Positions 1 through 5,881 of a stretch of DNA of 6,961 nt are shown piece after piece (positions within the stretch are counted from its first letter, which is position 1; each line of letters opens with the position of its first letter). Below the pieces are notes generated by a model. That model saw only the letters and a list, made by a program, of their open reading frames with translations, was not told the DNA's origin and did not search any database. The translations under genes were made by a program, and so were the position numbers. Source of the DNA: Anaerolineales bacterium (GTDB lineage: Bacteria > Chloroflexota > Anaerolineae > Anaerolineales > Villigracilaceae); contig JAQTWR010000144.1 of NCBI GenBank assembly GCA_028689195.1, positions 1 through 6,961 on the forward strand. Reading direction: 5' to 3'.

Positions 1-441
1 GTGCGCGTCGCCTTGACGTTGGTCACGCCAGCAATCTAAATCACATTTGGAATGATGATGACTAATACCACCGCTGCCGCAATCTCCACTTCCGCAGTAG
101 GTTTGATGACCTGTTGGGTCGGTATATTTTAAAGGATTATTTCGCACATAGGAATAGCGATCGTAATCTTGAGGGTTGTAGGGGTCTGGTACAATGCTGT
201 CAGGCTGGGTAAAGTGGTTAAGATAAGGGTCATAGAATCTTGCGCCGTAATACATGAGCCCAAAGCCTTCCGTCACTCCCGCAGTGGATGGGTCGTCCAT
301 ATAGGAATATTGCCCGGTGAACGTTTGGCGAGTCAACGCATAGGCGGAGGGGATGATCTCAGGGTCAGAACTTTTCCACGTGTAGCGGATTTCGCCCCAG
401 ATTTCAAAGACCTGACAGGTTTCACCATGCAGCGAGCCGAT
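1..441 (-). pseudogene. RHS repeat-associated core and start of a C-terminal tip (broken 5', runs off left edge)
   Basis: RHS proteins are large cell-surface or secreted proteins whose YD repeats form a shell around a variable C-terminal tip, often a toxin. Translating the minus strand from 441 gives 147 stop-free codons. These include the core motifs GEIRYTWKSSDPEIIPSAY, RQTFTGQYSYMDDPS, YYGARFYDPY, DRYSYVRNNP and the terminal DPTGH. After DPTGH comes a short Cys/His-rich stretch (YCGSGDCGSGG, then HHH) that continues past the window edge, so the tip cannot be identified. Upstream the frame meets a TAA at 442-444 inside an inverted-repeat element. The first in-frame ATG lies within the core (YSYM, at 300) and has no evident RBS, so normal translation is doubtful. 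The YD-repeat remnant at 495-608 is in another frame. I read this as a decayed, displaced RHS end; the core assignment is firm, loss of function is inferred. Confidence 0.75.
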
Positions 442-500
442 TTAGAGCCACGAATCAAAGCCGCGCTGGTTGATTAAGGCGCTGCGGAAACCTGTCAGGT
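410..500. repeat. Small inverted-repeat-bounded element, copy 1 (91 bp)
   Basis: The ends form a perfect 14-bp inverted repeat: ACCTGACAGGTTTC at 410-423 and GAAACCTGTCAGGT at 487-500. The interior is non-coding in every useful frame and introduces the TAA that interrupts the RHS reading frame. Its reverse complement aligns closely with the element at 2878-2997, sharing for example CCTTAATCAACCAGC and GGTGAAAC. The size, terminal repeats and lack of coding suggest a MITE-like or REP-like mobile repeat. No target duplication could be established by eye. Confidence 0.65.
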
Positions 501-608
501 ATGCTGCCTGTGCGCGAGAAAGTTTTGAGTTGGCAGCCCATCGACGTCATAGGCGTACGTATTGCCGCCCATGCTGGAAACAGCACAGTTGCACGCATGA
601 TGTAACAT
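495..608 (-). pseudogene. RHS YD-repeat remnant (37 codons)
   Basis: This minus-strand frame begins with ATG at 608-606, which overlaps the TAA stop of the preceding gene as TAATG, and ends at TGA 495-497 inside the inverted-repeat element. Its middle reads AVSSMGGNTYAYDVDG, a recognisable RHS YD-repeat unit. The frame differs from that of the core at 1-441, so the two pieces no longer make one protein. It is best seen as the start of the displaced RHS end, joined almost directly to the stop codon of the upstream cassette. That junction is what tip displacement by recombination would leave. Translation through the TAATG overlap is possible but would give only a short peptide. Confidence 0.55.
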
Positions 609-1048
609 TAGGGCACTTTAACTTTAAGCGAGCTTAAAACGTTTTTGCCGTCTGTCAAGTGGATTTCATAAAATCCTGTAGAAAGACGAGTATTCATATG
701 AATTACAATATTTCCATTAGTGATCCAAATTGTTTCATGATACATCGGGGGTTCAAGGAAATCTTGCTTGCCATTGTAAATATTAATCCGTATTTGTCTG
801 TGAATATCCTTAGTGGCAGAATTAACTTGTGTACATATATCAAACGGTCTATCTGCCACAATATTAGCATGGCGTATTTCATCTTTTACCTTTTCGCAAA
901 CAAAAGAGCTTTTCAGAACAAAATAAACGGGTTTCGATGCAGGCGAAAAAGAAAGAGCCCACTTTAGTAAAATGATTAGAACGATAAACACCACAAAGAT
1001 AATAAGGCTATTATCTTTAATAATTTTTGTTTTTATGTGCGTTTTCAT
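608..1048 (-). CDS. Single-pass membrane protein, candidate partner (immunity) of the preceding RHS tip
   Basis: I do not recognise the family. The 146-residue product starts MKTHIKTK, is positively charged at the N terminus, and has one hydrophobic segment at about residues 14-32 (SLIIFVVFIVLIILLKWAL). The rest is probably outside the cytoplasm and ends in a beta-rich stretch (TIWITNGNIVIHMNT, then FYEIHLTDGKNVLSSLKVKV). I chose the ATG at 1048 over a TTG at 1063 because GGTAGGT lies at a suitable distance upstream and the start then falls 8 bases after the RHS stop. The gene is strongly AT-rich compared with the plus-strand genes, which suggests horizontal origin. Its place directly behind an RHS tip matches immunity genes in RHS and polymorphic-toxin systems. 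The immunity role is inferred from position and size only. Confidence 0.6.
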   Translation of the reverse strand: MKTHIKTKIIKDNSLIIFVVFIVLIILLKWALSFSPASKPVYFVLKSSFVCEKVKDEIRHANIVADRPFDICTQVNSATKDIHRQIRINIYNGKQDFLEPPMYHETIWITNGNIVIHMNTRLSTGFYEIHLTDGKNVLSSLKVKVP

Positions 1049-1056
1049 AAATTTAC

Positions 1057-2043
1057 CTACCAAAATGAAAAAATATTTTTGGCGAACGAATAACTTAGTC
1101 CGCCTTGAAACGAAAAATCTGCGCCATTAGGAATGGCATTACCACCAAAGACAATGCTGTTTTCGCTTGTGTACATCAATCCCTCATCAAGTGTAAATAC
1201 AGGCTTGCCATTAGCCAAATCAATACTTACTGCTTTCTCTCCGCCAGCAAGCAATCCCATATCTAGATTGCCAGATACAGAGCCGTCAACTTGTGTCCCA
1301 GATAAAATACCTTCAAGGTTTTCTACATCACTTGGTATACCATGGGCGTTTGACGTGCCAAAATTGACGTTGCCCTCTATTCCAGTAGGGGATCCAGCAT
1401 AAATAAATCCCCCTACTGTTACTACTTTGTATAATTCGCCTTCTTTCCAATCCATCATGTAATCTTCCTGATAAGAAACACCACCTTCGCCACCATACCC
1501 TGCCTGTCCACTATATCCCCAATGAACACCAAAAACGGGCTTTGTTTTAGGTTGAGCCCACCCGCCTAGAATAAATTCGGCAGTTTCTCGATTTTGTTGC
1601 TGTTTCTGACCAGTCTGATCATATTCTAAACTGGCTAGTTTTTTAGCATTATCAGCTCGGATTATAGGATCATCTTCGTAACAATCATCGCTTCCCTCAC
1701 CACAGCCTGCTACGGGGACATGTCCTGACGGATCGTTAAATCTAACAGGGTTGTTATTTGCATACGCATACCGATCCAACCCCTGCGCTCCACTTGGGAC
1801 AATCGAATCCGCCTGAGCCATGCGTCCATTGTAAGGGTCGTAAAAACGTGACTGATAAAACATCAACCCAAAGCCCTCGCTCACCCCGGACGTGGAGGGA
1901 TCGTCCATGTAGGAATATTGTCCCGTGAACGTTTGGCGAGTCAACGCATAGGCGGAGGGGATGATCTCAGGGTCAGAACTTTTCCACATGTAGCGGATTT
2001 CGCCAAAGGGTTTGTCCCACAAGGGCGCTTCGCAATATCTCAT
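1057..2043 (-). CDS. Orphan RHS core with a Gly-rich, beta-rich C-terminal tip (328 aa)
   Basis: Residues 1-108 are an RHS core: KPFGEIRYMWKSSDPEI, RQTFTGQYSYMDDPS, FYQSRFYDPYNGRM, LDRYAYANNNPV and the closing DPSGH. After DPSGH comes a unique tip of about 220 residues. It is first acidic and Gln-rich (about 115-150), then rich in glycine and short beta-like strands (GVHWGYSGQAGYGGEGG, then VTVGGFIYAGS), and ends GLSYSFAKNIFSFW. I cannot match it to a known toxin fold. The YD-repeat body is missing; an in-frame TAA lies just upstream of the ATG. Residues 4-10 (CEAPLWD) are a 7-codon insertion absent from the related copy at 3819-4808. The partner gene starts 8 bases after the stop. Without the shell domain, delivery by the usual RHS route is unlikely, so the module may be a stored cassette awaiting recombination or simply decaying. 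Confidence 0.8.
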   Translation of the reverse strand: MRYCEAPLWDKPFGEIRYMWKSSDPEIIPSAYALTRQTFTGQYSYMDDPSTSGVSEGFGLMFYQSRFYDPYNGRMAQADSIVPSGAQGLDRYAYANNNPVRFNDPSGHVPVAGCGEGSDDCYEDDPIIRADNAKKLASLEYDQTGQKQQQNRETAEFILGGWAQPKTKPVFGVHWGYSGQAGYGGEGGVSYQEDYMMDWKEGELYKVVTVGGFIYAGSPTGIEGNVNFGTSNAHGIPSDVENLEGILSGTQVDGSVSGNLDMGLLAGGEKAVSIDLANGKPVFTLDEGLMYTSENSIVFGGNAIPNGADFSFQGGLSYSFAKNIFSFW

Positions 2044-2066
2044 TGCGAAAATTTTACCTTACAAGA

Positions 2067-2129
2067 CCATCTACGAATACCCAAAGATGGGTCTCGCCAT
2101 TCGATTATTCGTGAAAAATTCGTGGATGG
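2067..2129. repeat. Inverted repeat near the truncated RHS end
   Basis: CCATCTACGAAT at 2067-2078 pairs with ATTCGTGGATGG at 2118-2129 with one mismatch. The stretch is non-coding and lies just upstream of the RHS ATG at 2043. At the corresponding place ahead of the other RHS end (about 4836-4860) there is a shorter relative containing two CACGAAT motifs. This points to insertion or expansion of a small repeat in an inherited spacer. Confidence 0.45.
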
Positions 2130-2181
2130 TTTCATGACGTTGAAGTCCTACCAGTATTTCCGCGCGTGAGAAGGTTTTGAG

Positions 2182-2210
2182 TTGACGATCATCTTAAAGA
2201 TGACTGTCAA
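2182..2210. repeat. Near-perfect palindrome, REP-like copy
   Basis: The left arm TTGACGATCATCTT and right arm AAGATGACTGTCAA surround a single A. They match except for a swapped GA/AG pair. It is almost identical to the palindrome at 4898-4926 and sits at the same place, next to CTTGAGT/TTTGAGT, where homology to RHS coding sequence ends. No T-run follows on either strand, so a terminator role is uncertain. Confidence 0.6.
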
Positions 2211-2250
2211 CTGGTTTGCCCACTTACAAGACCCCATTCCCATTAATAAT

Positions 2251-2283
2251 AGATGACGGTCACTTGCCAAGTGACCGTCATCT
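2251..2283 (-). terminator. Perfect 16-bp hairpin just past the small gene
   Basis: AGATGACGGTCACTTG (2251-2266) and its exact complement CAAGTGACCGTCATCT (2268-2283) surround one base. On the minus strand the hairpin begins 2 bases after the stop codon of the gene at 2286-2642, so it is well placed to end that transcript. The following sequence is AT-rich (ATTATTAAT) but not a clean U-tract. Its arms are related to the palindromes at 2182 and 4898, so it may be a REP-like repeat used as a terminator. Confidence 0.55.
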
Positions 2284-2285
2284 TG

Positions 2286-2642
2286 TTACGCAGAAGCCTT
2301 TGCCTTGCGGACGGGGCGTTTGCGTTCGCTCTTGCGGATGCCGCCCGCCATTTCGTATTGACTGCTGTCTTTGCCATATTTCGCCGCGACGCCGGTCAAC
2401 ATGCGTTCGTTGAGGTCGCGCAGGGCTTTCTCGGCGGAGAGGACGGCGTTATAGGCTTCGTCCACTTGGGAGAGCAGGGTATTGTAGACGCCGAGTTTTG
2501 CCTGACAATCGCTGACTTCTGCCTGAAACGCGGCGACGGTCAAACCGCTGCCCAAATCCAGCGCGGGATCAATCGAAACGAGCGCGGACAGCCGCTGCTG
2601 GGCTTTCTCGACGATGGGGGACACTTTCTTTTGACGTGCCAT
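2286..2642 (-). CDS. Small conserved-looking helical protein (118 aa), function unknown
   Basis: The product begins MARQKKVSPIVEKAQQRLSAL. It is predicted mostly alpha-helical, with Leu/Ala heptad-like spacing at about residues 8-80 that could form a coiled coil. The C-terminal third carries RMLTGVAAKYGKDSSQYEMA, followed by GGIRKSERKRPVRKAKASA, a very basic tail that could bind nucleic acid. From memory, similar short proteins ending in GKDS..YE.AGG.RKSERK occur in several phyla without an assigned function; I cannot verify this here. The start is well supported by AGGAGA (2651-2656 on the other strand), 8 bases ahead of the ATG. A promoter lies at 2700-2728 and a hairpin follows the stop, so it looks like a complete single-gene transcription unit. 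It sits between RHS cassettes and shows no relation to them. Confidence 0.75.
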   Translation of the reverse strand: MARQKKVSPIVEKAQQRLSALVSIDPALDLGSGLTVAAFQAEVSDCQAKLGVYNTLLSQVDEAYNAVLSAEKALRDLNERMLTGVAAKYGKDSSQYEMAGGIRKSERKRPVRKAKASA

Positions 2643-2672
2643 GATGGAATTCTCCTTTTGGGGTTGAAATAT

Positions 2673-2861
2673 GTTCCTGTTACAAGGGAACCAGAACCTA
2701 TTATAAAGAAAACGGTTCTGGTTGTCGAGTAACTTGTTCTAATCATAAAGGAAATGGTTATATTTACAGAGTAGTGAGTTCTCGTTGCAAAGGAAGGAGT
2801 TCTAGTTACAAAGGAAATGGTTCTGTTTATCGAGTAATGTGTTCATATTGCAAAGGAACGT
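2673..2861. repeat. Nine tandem 21-bp repeats of two alternating subtypes
   Basis: Nine units of exactly 21 bp start at 2673, 2694, 2715, 2736, 2757, 2778, 2799, 2820 and 2841. Most begin GTTC. Subtype A ends in variants of ACAAAGGAAATG; subtype B ends in variants of ATCGAGTAATGT. The order is A A B A B A A B A. No frame is open through the array on either strand. The array lies upstream of the small gene at 2286-2642 and contains its probable promoter. There are no spacers between units, so it is not a CRISPR array. Confidence 0.85.
2700..2728 (-). promoter_or_regulatory. Probable sigma70-type promoter of the small gene
   Basis: On the minus strand TCGACA (2728-2723) is a 5/6 match to the -35 consensus and TATAAT (2705-2700) is a perfect -10, with a 17-bp spacer. 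Transcription would begin near 2693, leaving about 50 bases of leader before the ATG at 2642. The -35 falls in a subtype B repeat unit and the -10 in the adjacent subtype A unit. Confidence 0.6.
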
Positions 2862-2877
2862 GGACTTAATTTGAAAA

Positions 2878-2997
2878 AGACCTGACAGATTTCCATAGAG
2901 CCTTAATCAACCAGCATGACTTTGCTTTACGGAATCCGAATCGACTCGCTACACGGTGAAACGCTTCGGCAGGCTCAACGCACCGCCTGTCAGGTCT
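2878..2997. repeat. Inverted-repeat-bounded element, copy 2 (120 bp)
   Basis: AGACCTGACAG (2878-2888) and CTGTCAGGTCT (2987-2997) form an 11-bp perfect inverted repeat. The first 75 bases of the interior align with the reverse complement of the copy at 410-500. The extra length lies after GTGAAACGC and includes TTCGGCAGGCTCAACGCACC. The sequence next to its right end (GCTGCCTGCGCGTGAGAAGG) also flanks copy 1, but there it is joined to the opposite end of the interior. That implies inversion, or independent insertion in the other orientation. Confidence 0.6.
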
Positions 2998-3039
2998 GTG
3001 CTGCCTGCGCGTGAGAAGGTTGCCATGCCTTATTTTACT

Positions 3040-3822
3040 TTACCTATTTGTCCATGTTTTAATTATTTTTCCTGTATATGGGTCTATATGGATTTCAAAC
3101 AATGTTGTGGAGTGGTTTATAAGCGGGCCGTAATATATTACATCCCAATTTTCATCCAAATAAAGACCCAAAGTACATTTGTTTTGGATAGATTGACGCG
3201 CCGCCTTGCCGCCGTTTTCTTCCGCTATCCTGAGAGCGTCGTTGGCTGTGATTTTTAGATCGCTCAGATAATATTCGTTATCTCCAAAAAGAGGTCGGGG
3301 ATGTGTGGCGCCGCCACTCCCCCAAGATGCAGTACCATCTGGCAGGGATATTTCTATCACGCGTGAACTATAGCGAAACTCTTCCTGATAGATCAGTTGG
3401 TCAAAAATAATTTTGGCGTCTTCAAACCCAACGGGGTTTTCTTCACACGCTCTGTGAAAGACCATTCTATTTATGGTCCAATTTCTATGTCCTTCCTTCC
3501 ATTCAAATTCGAATAGCGCAAAAGCAACTTTCAGATATTCTGACTGTGTCCATTTTAAATTATCGCTCGTGTTTGAATTGGGAATCTGCGTAGTTTCAGG
3601 CAAGAATATCGGGGATTGCCCGCTGTCAATGGATTTAAGGATTGTGCTGGCGTCAATTTTATAACTACCTGAGTAGGGATAACCTGGAGGGGGTCTTGAG
3701 GGGTCAGGAATGCTGTCTGGGTTGAAAACAATCCCGAACAGACCGCACCAAGTTGTAATCAAAAGCGCGGATAGGATAACGATAATTGCTTTTTGTACAG
3801 TGTTTTTATTTATCATTTTCAT
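3040..3822 (-). CDS. Membrane-anchored protein with PepSY-like C terminus, candidate partner of the RHS tip
   Basis: The 260-residue product starts MKMINKNTVQK and has one hydrophobic segment at about residues 11-33, acting as anchor or signal; there is no clear lipobox. The remainder is likely extracytoplasmic. The last 70 residues resemble the PepSY pattern: ITANDALRIAEENGGK, then W-D-V-I-Y-Y, then LFEIHIDPYTGKIIKTW. PepSY domains are small extracytoplasmic domains associated with inhibiting or chaperoning partner proteins. The ATG overlaps the TGA of the upstream RHS gene (ATGA), which suggests translational coupling; there is no strong RBS. A second ATG two codons on is possible. The pairing with an RHS tip suggests an immunity or accessory role, but only position supports that. 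The PepSY call is a pattern match by eye. Confidence 0.6.
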   Translation of the reverse strand: MKMINKNTVQKAIIVILSALLITTWCGLFGIVFNPDSIPDPSRPPPGYPYSGSYKIDASTILKSIDSGQSPIFLPETTQIPNSNTSDNLKWTQSEYLKVAFALFEFEWKEGHRNWTINRMVFHRACEENPVGFEDAKIIFDQLIYQEEFRYSSRVIEISLPDGTASWGSGGATHPRPLFGDNEYYLSDLKITANDALRIAEENGGKAARQSIQNKCTLGLYLDENWDVIYYGPLINHSTTLFEIHIDPYTGKIIKTWTNR

Positions 3823-4808
3823 TTTACTATTAATCTTTCAAGATAATTCCAGTCAAACTCTGGGTGTGCGTCCCTGAAATCAGAATCAACGCCACTAAGA
3901 AAGGCGGAGAGGGTGCCGTCAGAACCGTTTAATATTTGATCCAATTGGTCACCTTCATAAAAATCACCAAGATACGCCTTCCAGTTAAACGTGCCATCTG
4001 AAGAAGTGTACTTCTTGGTTCCAATTGCATTTTTCAGGTCTTTGTAATTGTGGGCAGTGATCTCGCCGTTGGCTGCCAACACTGCGACCATCATCATATC
4101 TGTTGCGGTGCAACGACCAGCCGCGCACACATTTTGCAAGCCGAAAGAAATTTTCCTAGCCATGCCAGCCTTTGCGACACTATCATAGTGTTGGTCAAGT
4201 CCGAATAAGCCCACCGCTAGCCCCCGGTCACCATCCCAATCCCCATATCCCTTCGTTTCACAATCAGAACCAGGGTCACATACCTCAGTTCCATAAGCTG
4301 CGTTCATTTGCTCATCGCTGATTTTTGCTGATCCCTTACTGTCGTAGCTATCTCGGAATATTTCGTCTGGGTATATCCAACCAGCCCGTGTCGGGACGCC
4401 AGCGTTGAATAAAGGGGCAAACCCCCAACTTTGTTGATGAATACCAGCAGTTACCATTACAGTAAGGTAAGGATTTATTCTACATGCATAATCAGTTAGA
4501 TCGTCACAATGTCCAGTAGGATCCGTATGGTTGACTGGATTATTACTAACGTACGCATACCTATCCAACCCCTGCACTCCCCCAGGGACAATCGTATCCG
4601 CTTGAGCCATGCGTCCAGTGTAAGGATCATACCAGCGAGCGTTGTAGAACATCACCCCAAAGCCCTCCACCCCCGCAGTGGATGGGTCGTCCATGTAGGA
4701 ATATTGCCCGGTGAACGTTTGGCGAGTCAACGCATAGGCGGAGGGGATGATCTCAGGGTCAGAACTTTTCCACGTGTAGCGCACTTCGCCAAAGGGTTTA
4801 TATCTCAT
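3819..4808 (-). CDS. Orphan RHS core with an unrecognised C-terminal tip (329 aa)
   Basis: Residues 1-100 are an RHS core: MRYKPFGEVRYTWKSSDPEI, RQTFTGQYSYMDDPS, FYNARWYDPYTGRM, LDRYAYVSNNPV and DPTGH. The tip spans 101-329. It contains GYGDWDGDRGLAVGLFGLD, a central helical part with CAAGRCTATDMMMVAVLAANG, and an acidic end with DFYEGDQLDQILNGSDG and FDWNYLERLIVK. I do not recognise a catalytic fold; the GLAVGLFGLD stretch loosely recalls lysozyme-like sequences, but that is weak. The N-terminal RHS body is missing: the frame is closed by a TAA at about 4832, and the chosen ATG is the first after it. The same TAA context occurs ahead of the copy at 1057-2043, so both derive from one truncated ancestor or exchanged this segment. 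The partner gene overlaps its stop by 4 bases. Confidence 0.8.
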   Translation of the reverse strand: MRYKPFGEVRYTWKSSDPEIIPSAYALTRQTFTGQYSYMDDPSTAGVEGFGVMFYNARWYDPYTGRMAQADTIVPGGVQGLDRYAYVSNNPVNHTDPTGHCDDLTDYACRINPYLTVMVTAGIHQQSWGFAPLFNAGVPTRAGWIYPDEIFRDSYDSKGSAKISDEQMNAAYGTEVCDPGSDCETKGYGDWDGDRGLAVGLFGLDQHYDSVAKAGMARKISFGLQNVCAAGRCTATDMMMVAVLAANGEITAHNYKDLKNAIGTKKYTSSDGTFNWKAYLGDFYEGDQLDQILNGSDGTLSAFLSGVDSDFRDAHPEFDWNYLERLIVK

Positions 4809-4897
4809 CTCGGAGATTTTACCTTATAAGACCGCCCACGAATCAAAATCACGAATAAACGACTCGCCAATATTTCCGCGCGTGAGAAGGTCTTGAG

Positions 4898-4926
4898 TTG
4901 ACAGTCATCTTAAAGATGACTGTCAA
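4898..4926. repeat. Perfect palindrome between RHS remnant and ATP-grasp gene
   Basis: TTGACAGTCATCTT and its exact complement AAGATGACTGTCAA surround one A. It marks the boundary between the accessory region and the plus-strand genes and is nearly identical to the copy at 2182-2210. It might terminate minus-strand or plus-strand transcription, but no T-run follows. A dyad-binding operator is also possible. Confidence 0.65.
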
Positions 4927-4987
4927 CTACGCCCATACAAAACCATCCATCTCGATTCTTAATCTCCCAATTCCCCAATCCCTAACT

Positions 4988-4999: not shown

Positions 5000-5881
5000 A
5001 TGCGATACGACTTATGCCTCCCGTGGTACTGGGAATACGACGACGTTTTTGCCCGAATGGTGGAACGCGCCTGCATCGAGCAGGGCGTCTCGCTTTGGCA
5101 GATTAGACCCGACAACCTGCTCGAATCAATCACCGCGCTGTACAAAGGAATCACAACCTTCAAGACCCTTCTGCATCGCGGACAGGGCGAAGCGACTTTT
5201 GATCCGATTCCGCGCTGGGCGAAAGAATTCGGCGCGCGCCGCATCAACCCCGCGGAACTCTCCCTCTGGTCGGAAGATAAAGCCACCATGCACCTCGAAC
5301 TCATCGCCAGCGGATTGCACACCCCCTACACCGTTTTGCTTGCGCCGTTTTTAGAGCAGCCCGTCATCCCGCCCATTGACCTCGCGCCGCTCGGCGAACA
5401 TTTCGTCATCAAACCGTCCAACGAAGGCGGCGGGGAAGGCGTAATCATGGGCGCGACTTCAATGGATGAAATCTTGCAAGCGCGGATGGAATTCCCCGAA
5501 CAGAAGTATTTGATTCAAGCGCACGTCGCGCCGCGCATCATCGAAGACAAGCCCGCATGGTTCAGGGTTTTTTACGCGAACGGAGAAACCTAGCCGTGCT
5601 GGTGGGACCCTGAGACGCATATCTACAAAAATATCGAGGCGGAGGAAAATCTCCGCTACGGGCTGCACAGTTTGAAGGGAGTCGCGCAGCGCGTCGCTTC
5701 CATCTGCAAATTGGATTGGTTCAGCACCGAAATCGCGCTGACCGACGAATTCATCGTGGTAGATTACGTCAACGACGAAATAGATACGCGCGTACAATCG
5801 CAGGCGTTGGACGGCGCGCCCGACGAAGTAATGAACGGTATCGCAAAACAACTTGTAAAAATAGCAAAGGAAAATTTATAA
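5000..5881 (+). pseudogene. ATP-grasp ligase-like gene interrupted by an in-frame TAG
   Basis: ATP-grasp enzymes join a carboxylate to an amine or thiol through an acyl-phosphate, using ATP and magnesium. From the ATG at 5000 the protein runs MRYDLCLPWYWEYDDVF. It has the ATP-binding lysine strand FVIKPS (135-140), a glycine-rich loop NEGGGEGV (141-148), the adenine-region YLIQAHV (170-176) and FRVFY (188-192). Codon 198 is TAG (5591-5593). The same frame then continues for 95 codons with PCWWDPETHIYKN, DWFSTEIA and VVDYVND. This last part should hold the metal-binding acid and Asn (about D255, N258), so the 197-residue product would lack a complete active site. Codon use after the TAG is unchanged, which points to a recent nonsense change, a sequencing error or readthrough. 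The earlier TTG at 4898 was rejected because it lies in the palindrome. The substrate is unknown. Confidence 0.75.

What the first reader, a model, noticed from the sequence alone, without database searches (positions are those of the whole stretch)
1..4830. Stack of three orphan RHS ends, each with its own tip and, where visible, its own membrane-anchored partner
Three RHS cores of the same subfamily lie head to tail on one strand, each ending at DP[ST]GH and then diverging completely. Two are followed at once by a small one-pass membrane protein gene (8-base gap; 4-base overlap). No full-length RHS gene is present. Known RHS loci accumulate displaced C-terminal tip/immunity modules downstream of an active gene through recombination in the core; this looks like such an archive without the parent gene, apparently ending at the palindrome at 4898.
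Basis: partly seen in the sequence, partly recalled or inferred. Interest (0 to 1): 0.7.

Follow-up and report, generated by a model that had tools for sequence, protein, structure and literature searches.

The report
Parentless stack of envelope-toxin tips
In a draft genome of an uncultured bacterium related to Anaerolineales, three ends of RHS toxin genes lie in a row without the main gene, two of them directly followed by a gene for a predicted membrane-anchored protein that likely protects against that end, and because most such partners in related bacteria are predicted to sit in the cell envelope, this arsenal would strike the surface of rival cells rather than their interior.

Summary
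Three RHS-core ends lie head to tail on the minus strand, each ending DP[ST]GH before an unrelated tip; two are followed at once by a predicted one-pass membrane protein (4-base overlap; 8-base gap). No full-length RHS gene was found in the window or its 82%-complete MAG. The pairs recur: 14 of 15 tip-1-family hits are followed by partner 1 (unbiased: 4 of 4), 2 of 3 tip-2 homologues by partner 2; but 12 of 26 partner-1-family genes stand without a recognised tip 1. Tip 1 also ends two non-RHS proteins. Relatives show an RHS parent followed by such ends; one 97%-complete relative has a long array and no parent found. The palindrome at 4898 is a dispersed hairpin (33 places), not a boundary. 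New: across 134 RHS ends, 119 partners are membrane- or lipoprotein-like against 60 of 175 neighbouring genes; HExxH tips go with one lipoprotein motif (18 of 19; other tips 1 of 115). A published survey calls nearly all immunity proteins cytosolic. Tip 1 models well and weakly resembles lysozyme-superfamily folds. Toxicity and immunity are inferred. Verdict: known kind (orphan RHS modules), new variant: parentless and likely envelope-directed.

The parts
4509..4808 (-). RHS core 1, ends DPTGH; in-frame stop just upstream, so only about the last 100 residues of the core remain
   Evidence: TIGR03696 52.3 bits
3819..4508 (-). tip 1 (229 aa) with stop; modelled fold weakly similar to lysozyme-superfamily enzymes
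3040..3822 (-). partner 1 (260 aa): one predicted N-terminal membrane stretch, C-terminal PepSY-like domain (below cut-off); start overlaps the tip-1 stop by 4 bases
1720..2016 (-). RHS core 2, ends DPSGH; a short insertion lies just before KPFGE
   Evidence: TIGR03696 46.4 bits; sequence
1057..1719 (-). tip 2 (220 aa) with stop; no family found, structure prediction failed
608..1048 (-). partner 2 (146 aa): one predicted N-terminal membrane stretch; starts 8 bases after the tip-2 stop
106..405 (-). RHS core 3, ends DPTGH; its open frame begins inside a short inverted-repeat element
   Evidence: TIGR03696 47.5 bits
1..105 (-). first 35 residues of tip 3, cut by the contig end
4867..4928 (.). 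spacer repeat with hairpin upstream of core 1 (94% copy at 2151-2212)
   Evidence: hairpin motif dispersed in the MAG
2151..2212 (.). spacer repeat with hairpin upstream of core 2
411..500 (.). short element with ACCTGACAGGT inverted ends at the truncation point of core 3; related element at about 2880-2997

Best explanation
Three RHS C-terminal ends, two of them directly followed by a predicted membrane-anchored partner gene, sit in a row with no full-length RHS gene found in this draft genome, and they are likely a parentless store of toxin-tip and immunity modules whose tips would act on the cell envelope. Shown: the anatomy, the recurrence of both tip-partner pairs elsewhere, the parent-plus-orphans layout in relatives, and the excess of membrane- and lipoprotein-like partners. 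Inferred: in the ancestral state a Sec-exported RHS parent displayed one tip on the cell surface; recombination in the core swapped tips and left the displaced ends downstream; here the parent was lost or lies outside the assembled part. The partners would still protect the envelope against kin that fire these tips, which could explain why their frames stay open. Tip 1 would attack the cell wall or another envelope target through a lysozyme-like fold.
For: RHS cores. Pairing: in the 152-genome tip-1 search the 4 genomes with a hit besides the window's own all show a partner-1 homologue just downstream in the partner-1 search; over the fetched loci 14 of 15 tip-1-family hits (window included) are followed by partner 1, the 15th lying at a contig end. 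Tip-2 homologues in G132 and G023 are followed by partner-2 homologues. Tip 1 also ends two non-RHS proteins with partner 1 next to them (L116, L117). Long RHS gene at the head of orphans: G058:C16, G058:C4, G003:C91, G056:C1, G026:C1. At least 11 ends and no parent found: G032. Envelope bias: 83 of 90, then 36 of 44 in a fresh set, against 60 of 175 control genes; 61 of 66 in 21 loci picked by core match alone. In E. coli EC93 an orphan CDI immunity protein is made while its orphan tip is not (PMC3150448, passages).
Against: No toxicity or immunity data. No full-length RHS gene carrying tip 1 or tip 2 was found. 12 of 26 partner-1-family hits have no recognised tip 1 upstream, most beside unrelated genes, so partner 1 may belong to a wider family with another role. 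In G131 the tip-2 homologue runs into further RHS sequence with no partner-2 start, and a weak partner-2 homologue in G422 has no recognisable tip in the short stretch upstream. Cores have diverged (dS 0.53-1.15), against easy homologous exchange now. The MAG is 82% complete. Tip 1 has Gln in 12 of 13 rows near the place where a catalytic Glu would be expected, and fold matches are weak. The hydropathy and lipobox rule is home-made. Other phyla gave 4 of 9 envelope-like partners, too few to settle specificity.
Confidence: 0.64

Rival explanations
1. The array is kept only as an immunity bank: the partners are made and protect the envelope, while the tips are silent leftovers that are never fired.
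For: Partners have a Shine-Dalgarno-like site of 4 or more bases in 48 of 90 cases; for the two window tips the best is 3. Partner-1-family genes also stand without a recognised tip, 12 of 26. An orphan CDI immunity protein is expressed without its tip in E. coli EC93 (PMC3150448, passages). No parent found in this MAG or in G032.
Against: Both complete tips here keep open frames and tip-1 family residues are conserved; a pure bank would let the tips decay.
Confidence: 0.3
2. A graveyard: the modules are inert remains of a lost RHS locus, broken by short repeats, with no present role.
For: Cores truncated, short inverted-repeat elements and hairpins near the break points, no parent found, weak start signals.
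Against: Two complete tips and two partners without a stop; coding constraint between cores (dN/dS 0.12-0.22), although that may predate the displacement; the pairs recur elsewhere.
Confidence: 0.2
3. Each module is a free-standing small toxin gene expressed and exported without a parent.
For: Open frames of about 330 aa with a possible start; an array with open frames and no parent found in G032; tip 1 rides on non-RHS chassis as well.
Against: The two complete frames begin with core sequence, not with a hydrophobic export signal (sequence), and have no clear ribosome-binding site.
Confidence: 0.08
4. Assembly artefact: repeats shared between contigs C177 and C162 joined pieces of separate RHS genes.
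For: C177 ends inside an RHS tip; 337 bp of spacer at 96% and 275 bp of core at 91% identity are shared with C162. Read coverage could not be checked.
Against: Runs of such ends in other assemblies (G032, G058, G003, G056, G026), and tip-partner adjacency recurs independently.
Confidence: 0.06

Closest known systems
Orphan rhs-CT/rhsI modules of Enterobacteriaceae (Salmonella LT2, Dickeya dadantii)
   Same: Core fragment ending at a DPxG motif, unrelated tip, immunity-like gene directly after
   Different: Here no full-length rhs gene was found in the contig or the MAG, the partners are predicted membrane proteins, and the cores have diverged more (LT2: 522 bp at 95%, PMC3967940 passages; here 73-91% over 173-468 bp)
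Orphan cdiA-CT/cdiI arrays (E. coli EC93, EC869)
   Same: Stacks of tip/immunity modules, most tips without a start, behind a delivery gene; an orphan immunity protein is expressed (PMC3150448, passages)
   Different: Different chassis and boundary motif (VENN); a delivery gene is present
Polymorphic toxin systems with secreted or membrane immunity (L,D-peptidase immunity, Imm17, Imm65)
   Same: Immunity protein in the membrane or secreted; Imm65 a lipoprotein
   Different: There an exception (PMC3482391, passages); here 119 of 134 partners, and neither window partner reaches an immunity-family cut-off in Pfam or NCBIfam
Lysozyme superfamily (lytic transglycosylase, GH124, GH19, GH80; grouping recalled)
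   Same: Weak fold similarity of the tip-1 model
   Different: No sequence match, and mostly Gln where a catalytic Glu is expected

Membership tests
RHS toxin (C-terminal end) | RHS-associated core ending in a DPxG motif | tested here: met
   TIGR03696 above cut-off for all 3; DP[ST]GH in all 3
Orphan rhs-CT/rhsI module | Displaced fragment of the core fused to a tip unrelated to its neighbours | tested here: met
   the 90 counted tips fell in 90 clusters
Orphan rhs-CT/rhsI module | Immunity-like gene directly downstream that travels with the tip | tested here: met
   Tip 1 / partner 1: 14 of 15 (4 of 4 unbiased). Tip 2 / partner 2: 2 of 3 other genomes. Tip 3: off the contig. Against strictness: 12 of 26 partner-1-family hits lack a recognised tip 1
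Orphan rhs-CT/rhsI module | Usual, not defining: a full-length rhs gene upstream | tested here: inconclusive
   None in the contig, none found in the MAG, which is 82% complete
Orphan rhs-CT/rhsI module | Toxic tip neutralised by its partner | not testable with these tools
   needs expression tests
PepSY domain (PF03413), partner 1 | Score above the curated cut-off | tested here: inconclusive
   22.3 bits against 24; 10 of 62 listed proteins carry PF03413 precomputed
Lysozyme superfamily, tip 1 | Fold | tested here: inconclusive
Lysozyme superfamily, tip 1 | Catalytic Glu | tested here: inconclusive
   Gln in 12 of 13 rows at residue 26, Glu in 1; the equivalence of the position is inferred

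The most novel reading that the evidence does not exclude
A whole bacterial order has turned its RHS weapons outward: Sec-exported RHS proteins of Anaerolineales carry tips that kill at the envelope (metallopeptidases, membrane-inserting tips, lysozyme-like tips), each matched to a lipoprotein or membrane immunity protein, and parentless stacks such as this one are kept as shields against kin.
Probability: 0.42. Interest if true: 0.72.

Novelty: new variant of a known kind. Interest (0 to 1): 0.52.

Why it matters
Orphan RHS modules are known, but the survey of polymorphic toxins seen here says that all but few immunity proteins are cytosolic (PMC3482391, passages). A clade in which about nine in ten RHS partners look like envelope proteins, with one tight metallopeptidase-lipoprotein pairing, points to a different site of attack and gives dozens of toxin-immunity candidates to test. 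Parentless arrays make the question 'are orphans kept for the tip or for the immunity' directly testable.

Tried and rejected
Palindrome at 4898 as the array end: rejected, 33 places in the MAG with up to 1 mismatch, 0 for the reversed control pattern.

Full-length RHS gene ending in tip 1 or tip 2: none found (tip 1 in 152 genomes; tip 2 in 400; among the 15 tip-1-family hits the longest RHS-type frame is 810 aa, and a 607-aa one begins at a contig edge).

Tip 2 structure: failed, pLDDT 34, not used. Pfam gave only chance-level matches for tip 1, none for tip 2, and only scattered single-member matches for the 14 tip-1 rows; sequence searches of the PDB gave nothing significant. Foldseek gave no significant match for tip 1 (none at E up to 0.001).

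Start-signal test: 32 of 78 orphan ends have some start with a 4-base Shine-Dalgarno-like match, but several starts were tried per end against a background of 0.108 per start, so no conclusion.

Control from other phyla: 8 of the 60 listed plasmid records were fetched, all environmental strains. The script (looser: E up to 1e-3, tips of 60 or more) saw 14 ends; 9 were counted, 3 dropped for a gap over 150 bases, 1 with no partner found, 1 with a tip under 60. Of the 9, 4 were envelope-like, one of these probably a false lipobox; one 'soluble' case is annotated as a transposase and one has a signal-like start. Too small to carry the claim.

Rows dropped before the partner counts. First set: 120 ends, 100 with tips of 90 or more; 5 of these had no partner in view; of 95, 2 whose 'partner' was the next RHS core and 3 with a gap over 150 were dropped, leaving 90. 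Second set: 129 ends to 44 (50 already counted, 28 tips under 90, 4 with no partner, 2 with a gap over 150, 1 next RHS core). One HExxH match at the very end of a tip (L097, 11214) was taken as chance. L156 looks like a lipoprotein but stays counted as soluble. Control genes had to be 120-450 aa and come from the loci of the first set only; over all lengths they gave 76 of 202. Related loci are not independent, so the p-values are only a guide.

Literature: the listings showed no paper whose title concerns RHS orphan arrays in Anaerolineae or Chloroflexi. Seen: passages of PMC3482391, PMC3967940 and PMC3150448.
Full report
WHAT IS THERE. The window is the whole contig C177 of a 2.85-Mb, 82%-complete draft genome. 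Loci with a similar RHS core in the named genome collection are almost all Chloroflexota: 66 of 69, counting Candidatus Aquidulcis as Chloroflexota from recall; the other 3 records are titled Woesearchaeota, Chromatiales and Natronospirales (the search words came from these cores, so it favours near relatives). On the minus strand lie core 1 + tip 1 (4808-3819), partner 1 (3822-3040), core 2 + tip 2 (2043-1057), partner 2 (1048-608) and core 3 + tip 3 (405-1, cut by the contig end). All three cores pass the Rhs_assc_core cut-off. Between modules lie short repeats, hairpins and an unrelated 118-aa ORF.

NO PARENT FOUND. A 2773-aa RHS gene from a relative finds only four places in this MAG: three here, one on C162. 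The first 2000 residues of that gene find nothing in G000, G032 or G011, and find something in the other 13 of 16 genomes. G032 is 97% complete in 4 contigs and has at least 11 ends with tips of 90 residues or more in one array. A more distant kind of parent could be missed by this query.

WHERE SUCH ARRAYS COME FROM. In five loci a long RHS frame (2032 to 2576 aa) heads orphan ends on the same strand: G058:C16 with seven, G058:C4, G003:C91 and G056:C1 with two each, G026:C1 with one. Of three long genes scanned, all carry RHS repeats, and an SpvB match passes its cut-off in two and falls just below in one; L039, L106, L108 and L118 begin with a Sec-type signal (read by eye). This fits the displaced-module model for Salmonella (PMC3967940, passages).

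THE PAIRS RECUR. Tip 1 has one close protein in the 5.8-billion set (45% identity, itself an RHS end); partner 1 has 61 relatives besides itself. In the 152-genome search for tip 1, four genomes besides the window's had a hit, and the partner-1 search found a homologue just downstream in all four. With profiles over the fetched loci, 14 of 15 tip-1-family hits (window included) are followed by partner 1, and the 15th lies at a contig end. Many of those loci were fetched because they hold partner 1, so the unbiased figure is 4 of 4. In the other direction the link is looser: of 26 partner-1-family hits, 12 have no recognised tip 1 upstream; one of these is near a contig end and most of the others stand beside unrelated genes. 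They may be free-standing immunity genes or show a wider PepSY-like family. Tip 1 also ends two non-RHS proteins (L116, L117), again with partner 1 next; Pfam found no RHS family there. Tip 2 has one relative in the protein set (54%) and recurs in G132, G131 and G023, with a weak fragment in G206. Partner-2 homologues follow in G132 and G023 (alignment score 73, shuffles 29 +/- 4.6); in G131 the tip runs into further RHS sequence with no partner-2 start, and a weak partner-2 homologue in G422 has no recognisable tip in the short stretch upstream.

PARTNERS LOOK LIKE ENVELOPE PROTEINS. With a simple rule (19-residue hydropathy of 1.6 or more, or a lipobox after a hydrophobic start), 83 of 90 partners in the fetched loci are envelope-like against 60 of 175 other genes of 120-450 aa in the same loci. 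In 21 loci picked by core match alone the count is 61 of 66. A second set from the named collection gave 36 of 44. Together 119 of 134: 54 lipoprotein-like, 40 with several membrane stretches, 25 with one. Against the control genes the odds ratio is 15, p 2e-23, a guide only, as loci are related. Tips fit their partners. Tips with HExxH have envelope-like partners in 19 of 19 cases, 18 of them with the motif Cx(1-3)[PL]C[WFL], against 1 of 115 other tips. Tips with a hydrophobic stretch are commoner beside multi-pass partners, 23 of 40 against 16 of 94. [quoted passage not shown] A small control from other phyla gave 4 of 9. The seven soluble partners of the first set include C162's, which matches Imm74 just below cut-off (25.5 against 27.1 bits).

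AGE. Cores differ at synonymous sites by 0.53-1.15 (Jukes-Cantor) with dN/dS 0.12-0.22: old, constrained copies, not fresh duplicates. Core 3 matches core 1 at 88% over 173 nt and then drops out of the match, as expected of an exchange inside the core (inference).

VERDICT. Known kind, new variant. Shown: anatomy, recurrence, no parent found in the draft, envelope bias by a simple rule. Inferred: toxicity, immunity, site of action, loss of the parent, and upkeep as a shield. The confidence went from 0.66 to 0.64 on checking, because of the tip-less partner-1 genes and G131.

Noticed in passing
window 5017-5881 (+): An ATP-grasp-like gene (weak RimK-type match) divergent to the array is interrupted by one in-frame TAG at 5591-5593.
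   Followed up: no
window 2286-2642 (-) and L034 4231-4446 (-): A 118-aa ORF between partner 1 and core 2 recurs, shorter, at the 3' side of the other RHS array (94% identity); homologues occur in 8 of 60 relatives.
   Followed up: partly
window 4896-4928, 2180-2212, 2251-2283: Family of strong hairpins, 33 places in the MAG for one shared motif; perhaps terminators or REP-like elements.
   Followed up: partly
window 411-500 and about 2880-2997: Two short elements with ACCTGACAGGT-type inverted ends; one sits exactly where core 3 is truncated.
   Followed up: partly
window 2672-2858: Diverged tandem repeat of about 63 bp (GTTCTGGTTGTCGAGTAA-like) upstream of the 118-aa ORF.
   Followed up: no
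L097 (G032:C1:3936000-3955999): Several tips in one array share roughly their first 40 residues (ICVESDGDSD...) and then diverge, as if a second exchange point lies inside the tip.
   Followed up: no
L149 (JACQXV010000059.1): A record titled Woesearchaeota archaeon holds Anaerolineales-type RHS ends with lipoprotein-like and membrane partners; probably a misbinned contig.
   Followed up: no
L034 6839-7312 and 6094-6789 (-): The other RHS contig of this MAG (C162) holds an HExxH tip, cut by the contig end, followed by a lipoprotein-like partner with the CKLPCW motif.
   Followed up: partly
L123, L125, L127, L129, L133 and others: Partner-1-family genes standing without a recognised tip 1, beside unrelated genes: possible free-standing immunity genes.
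   Followed up: partly
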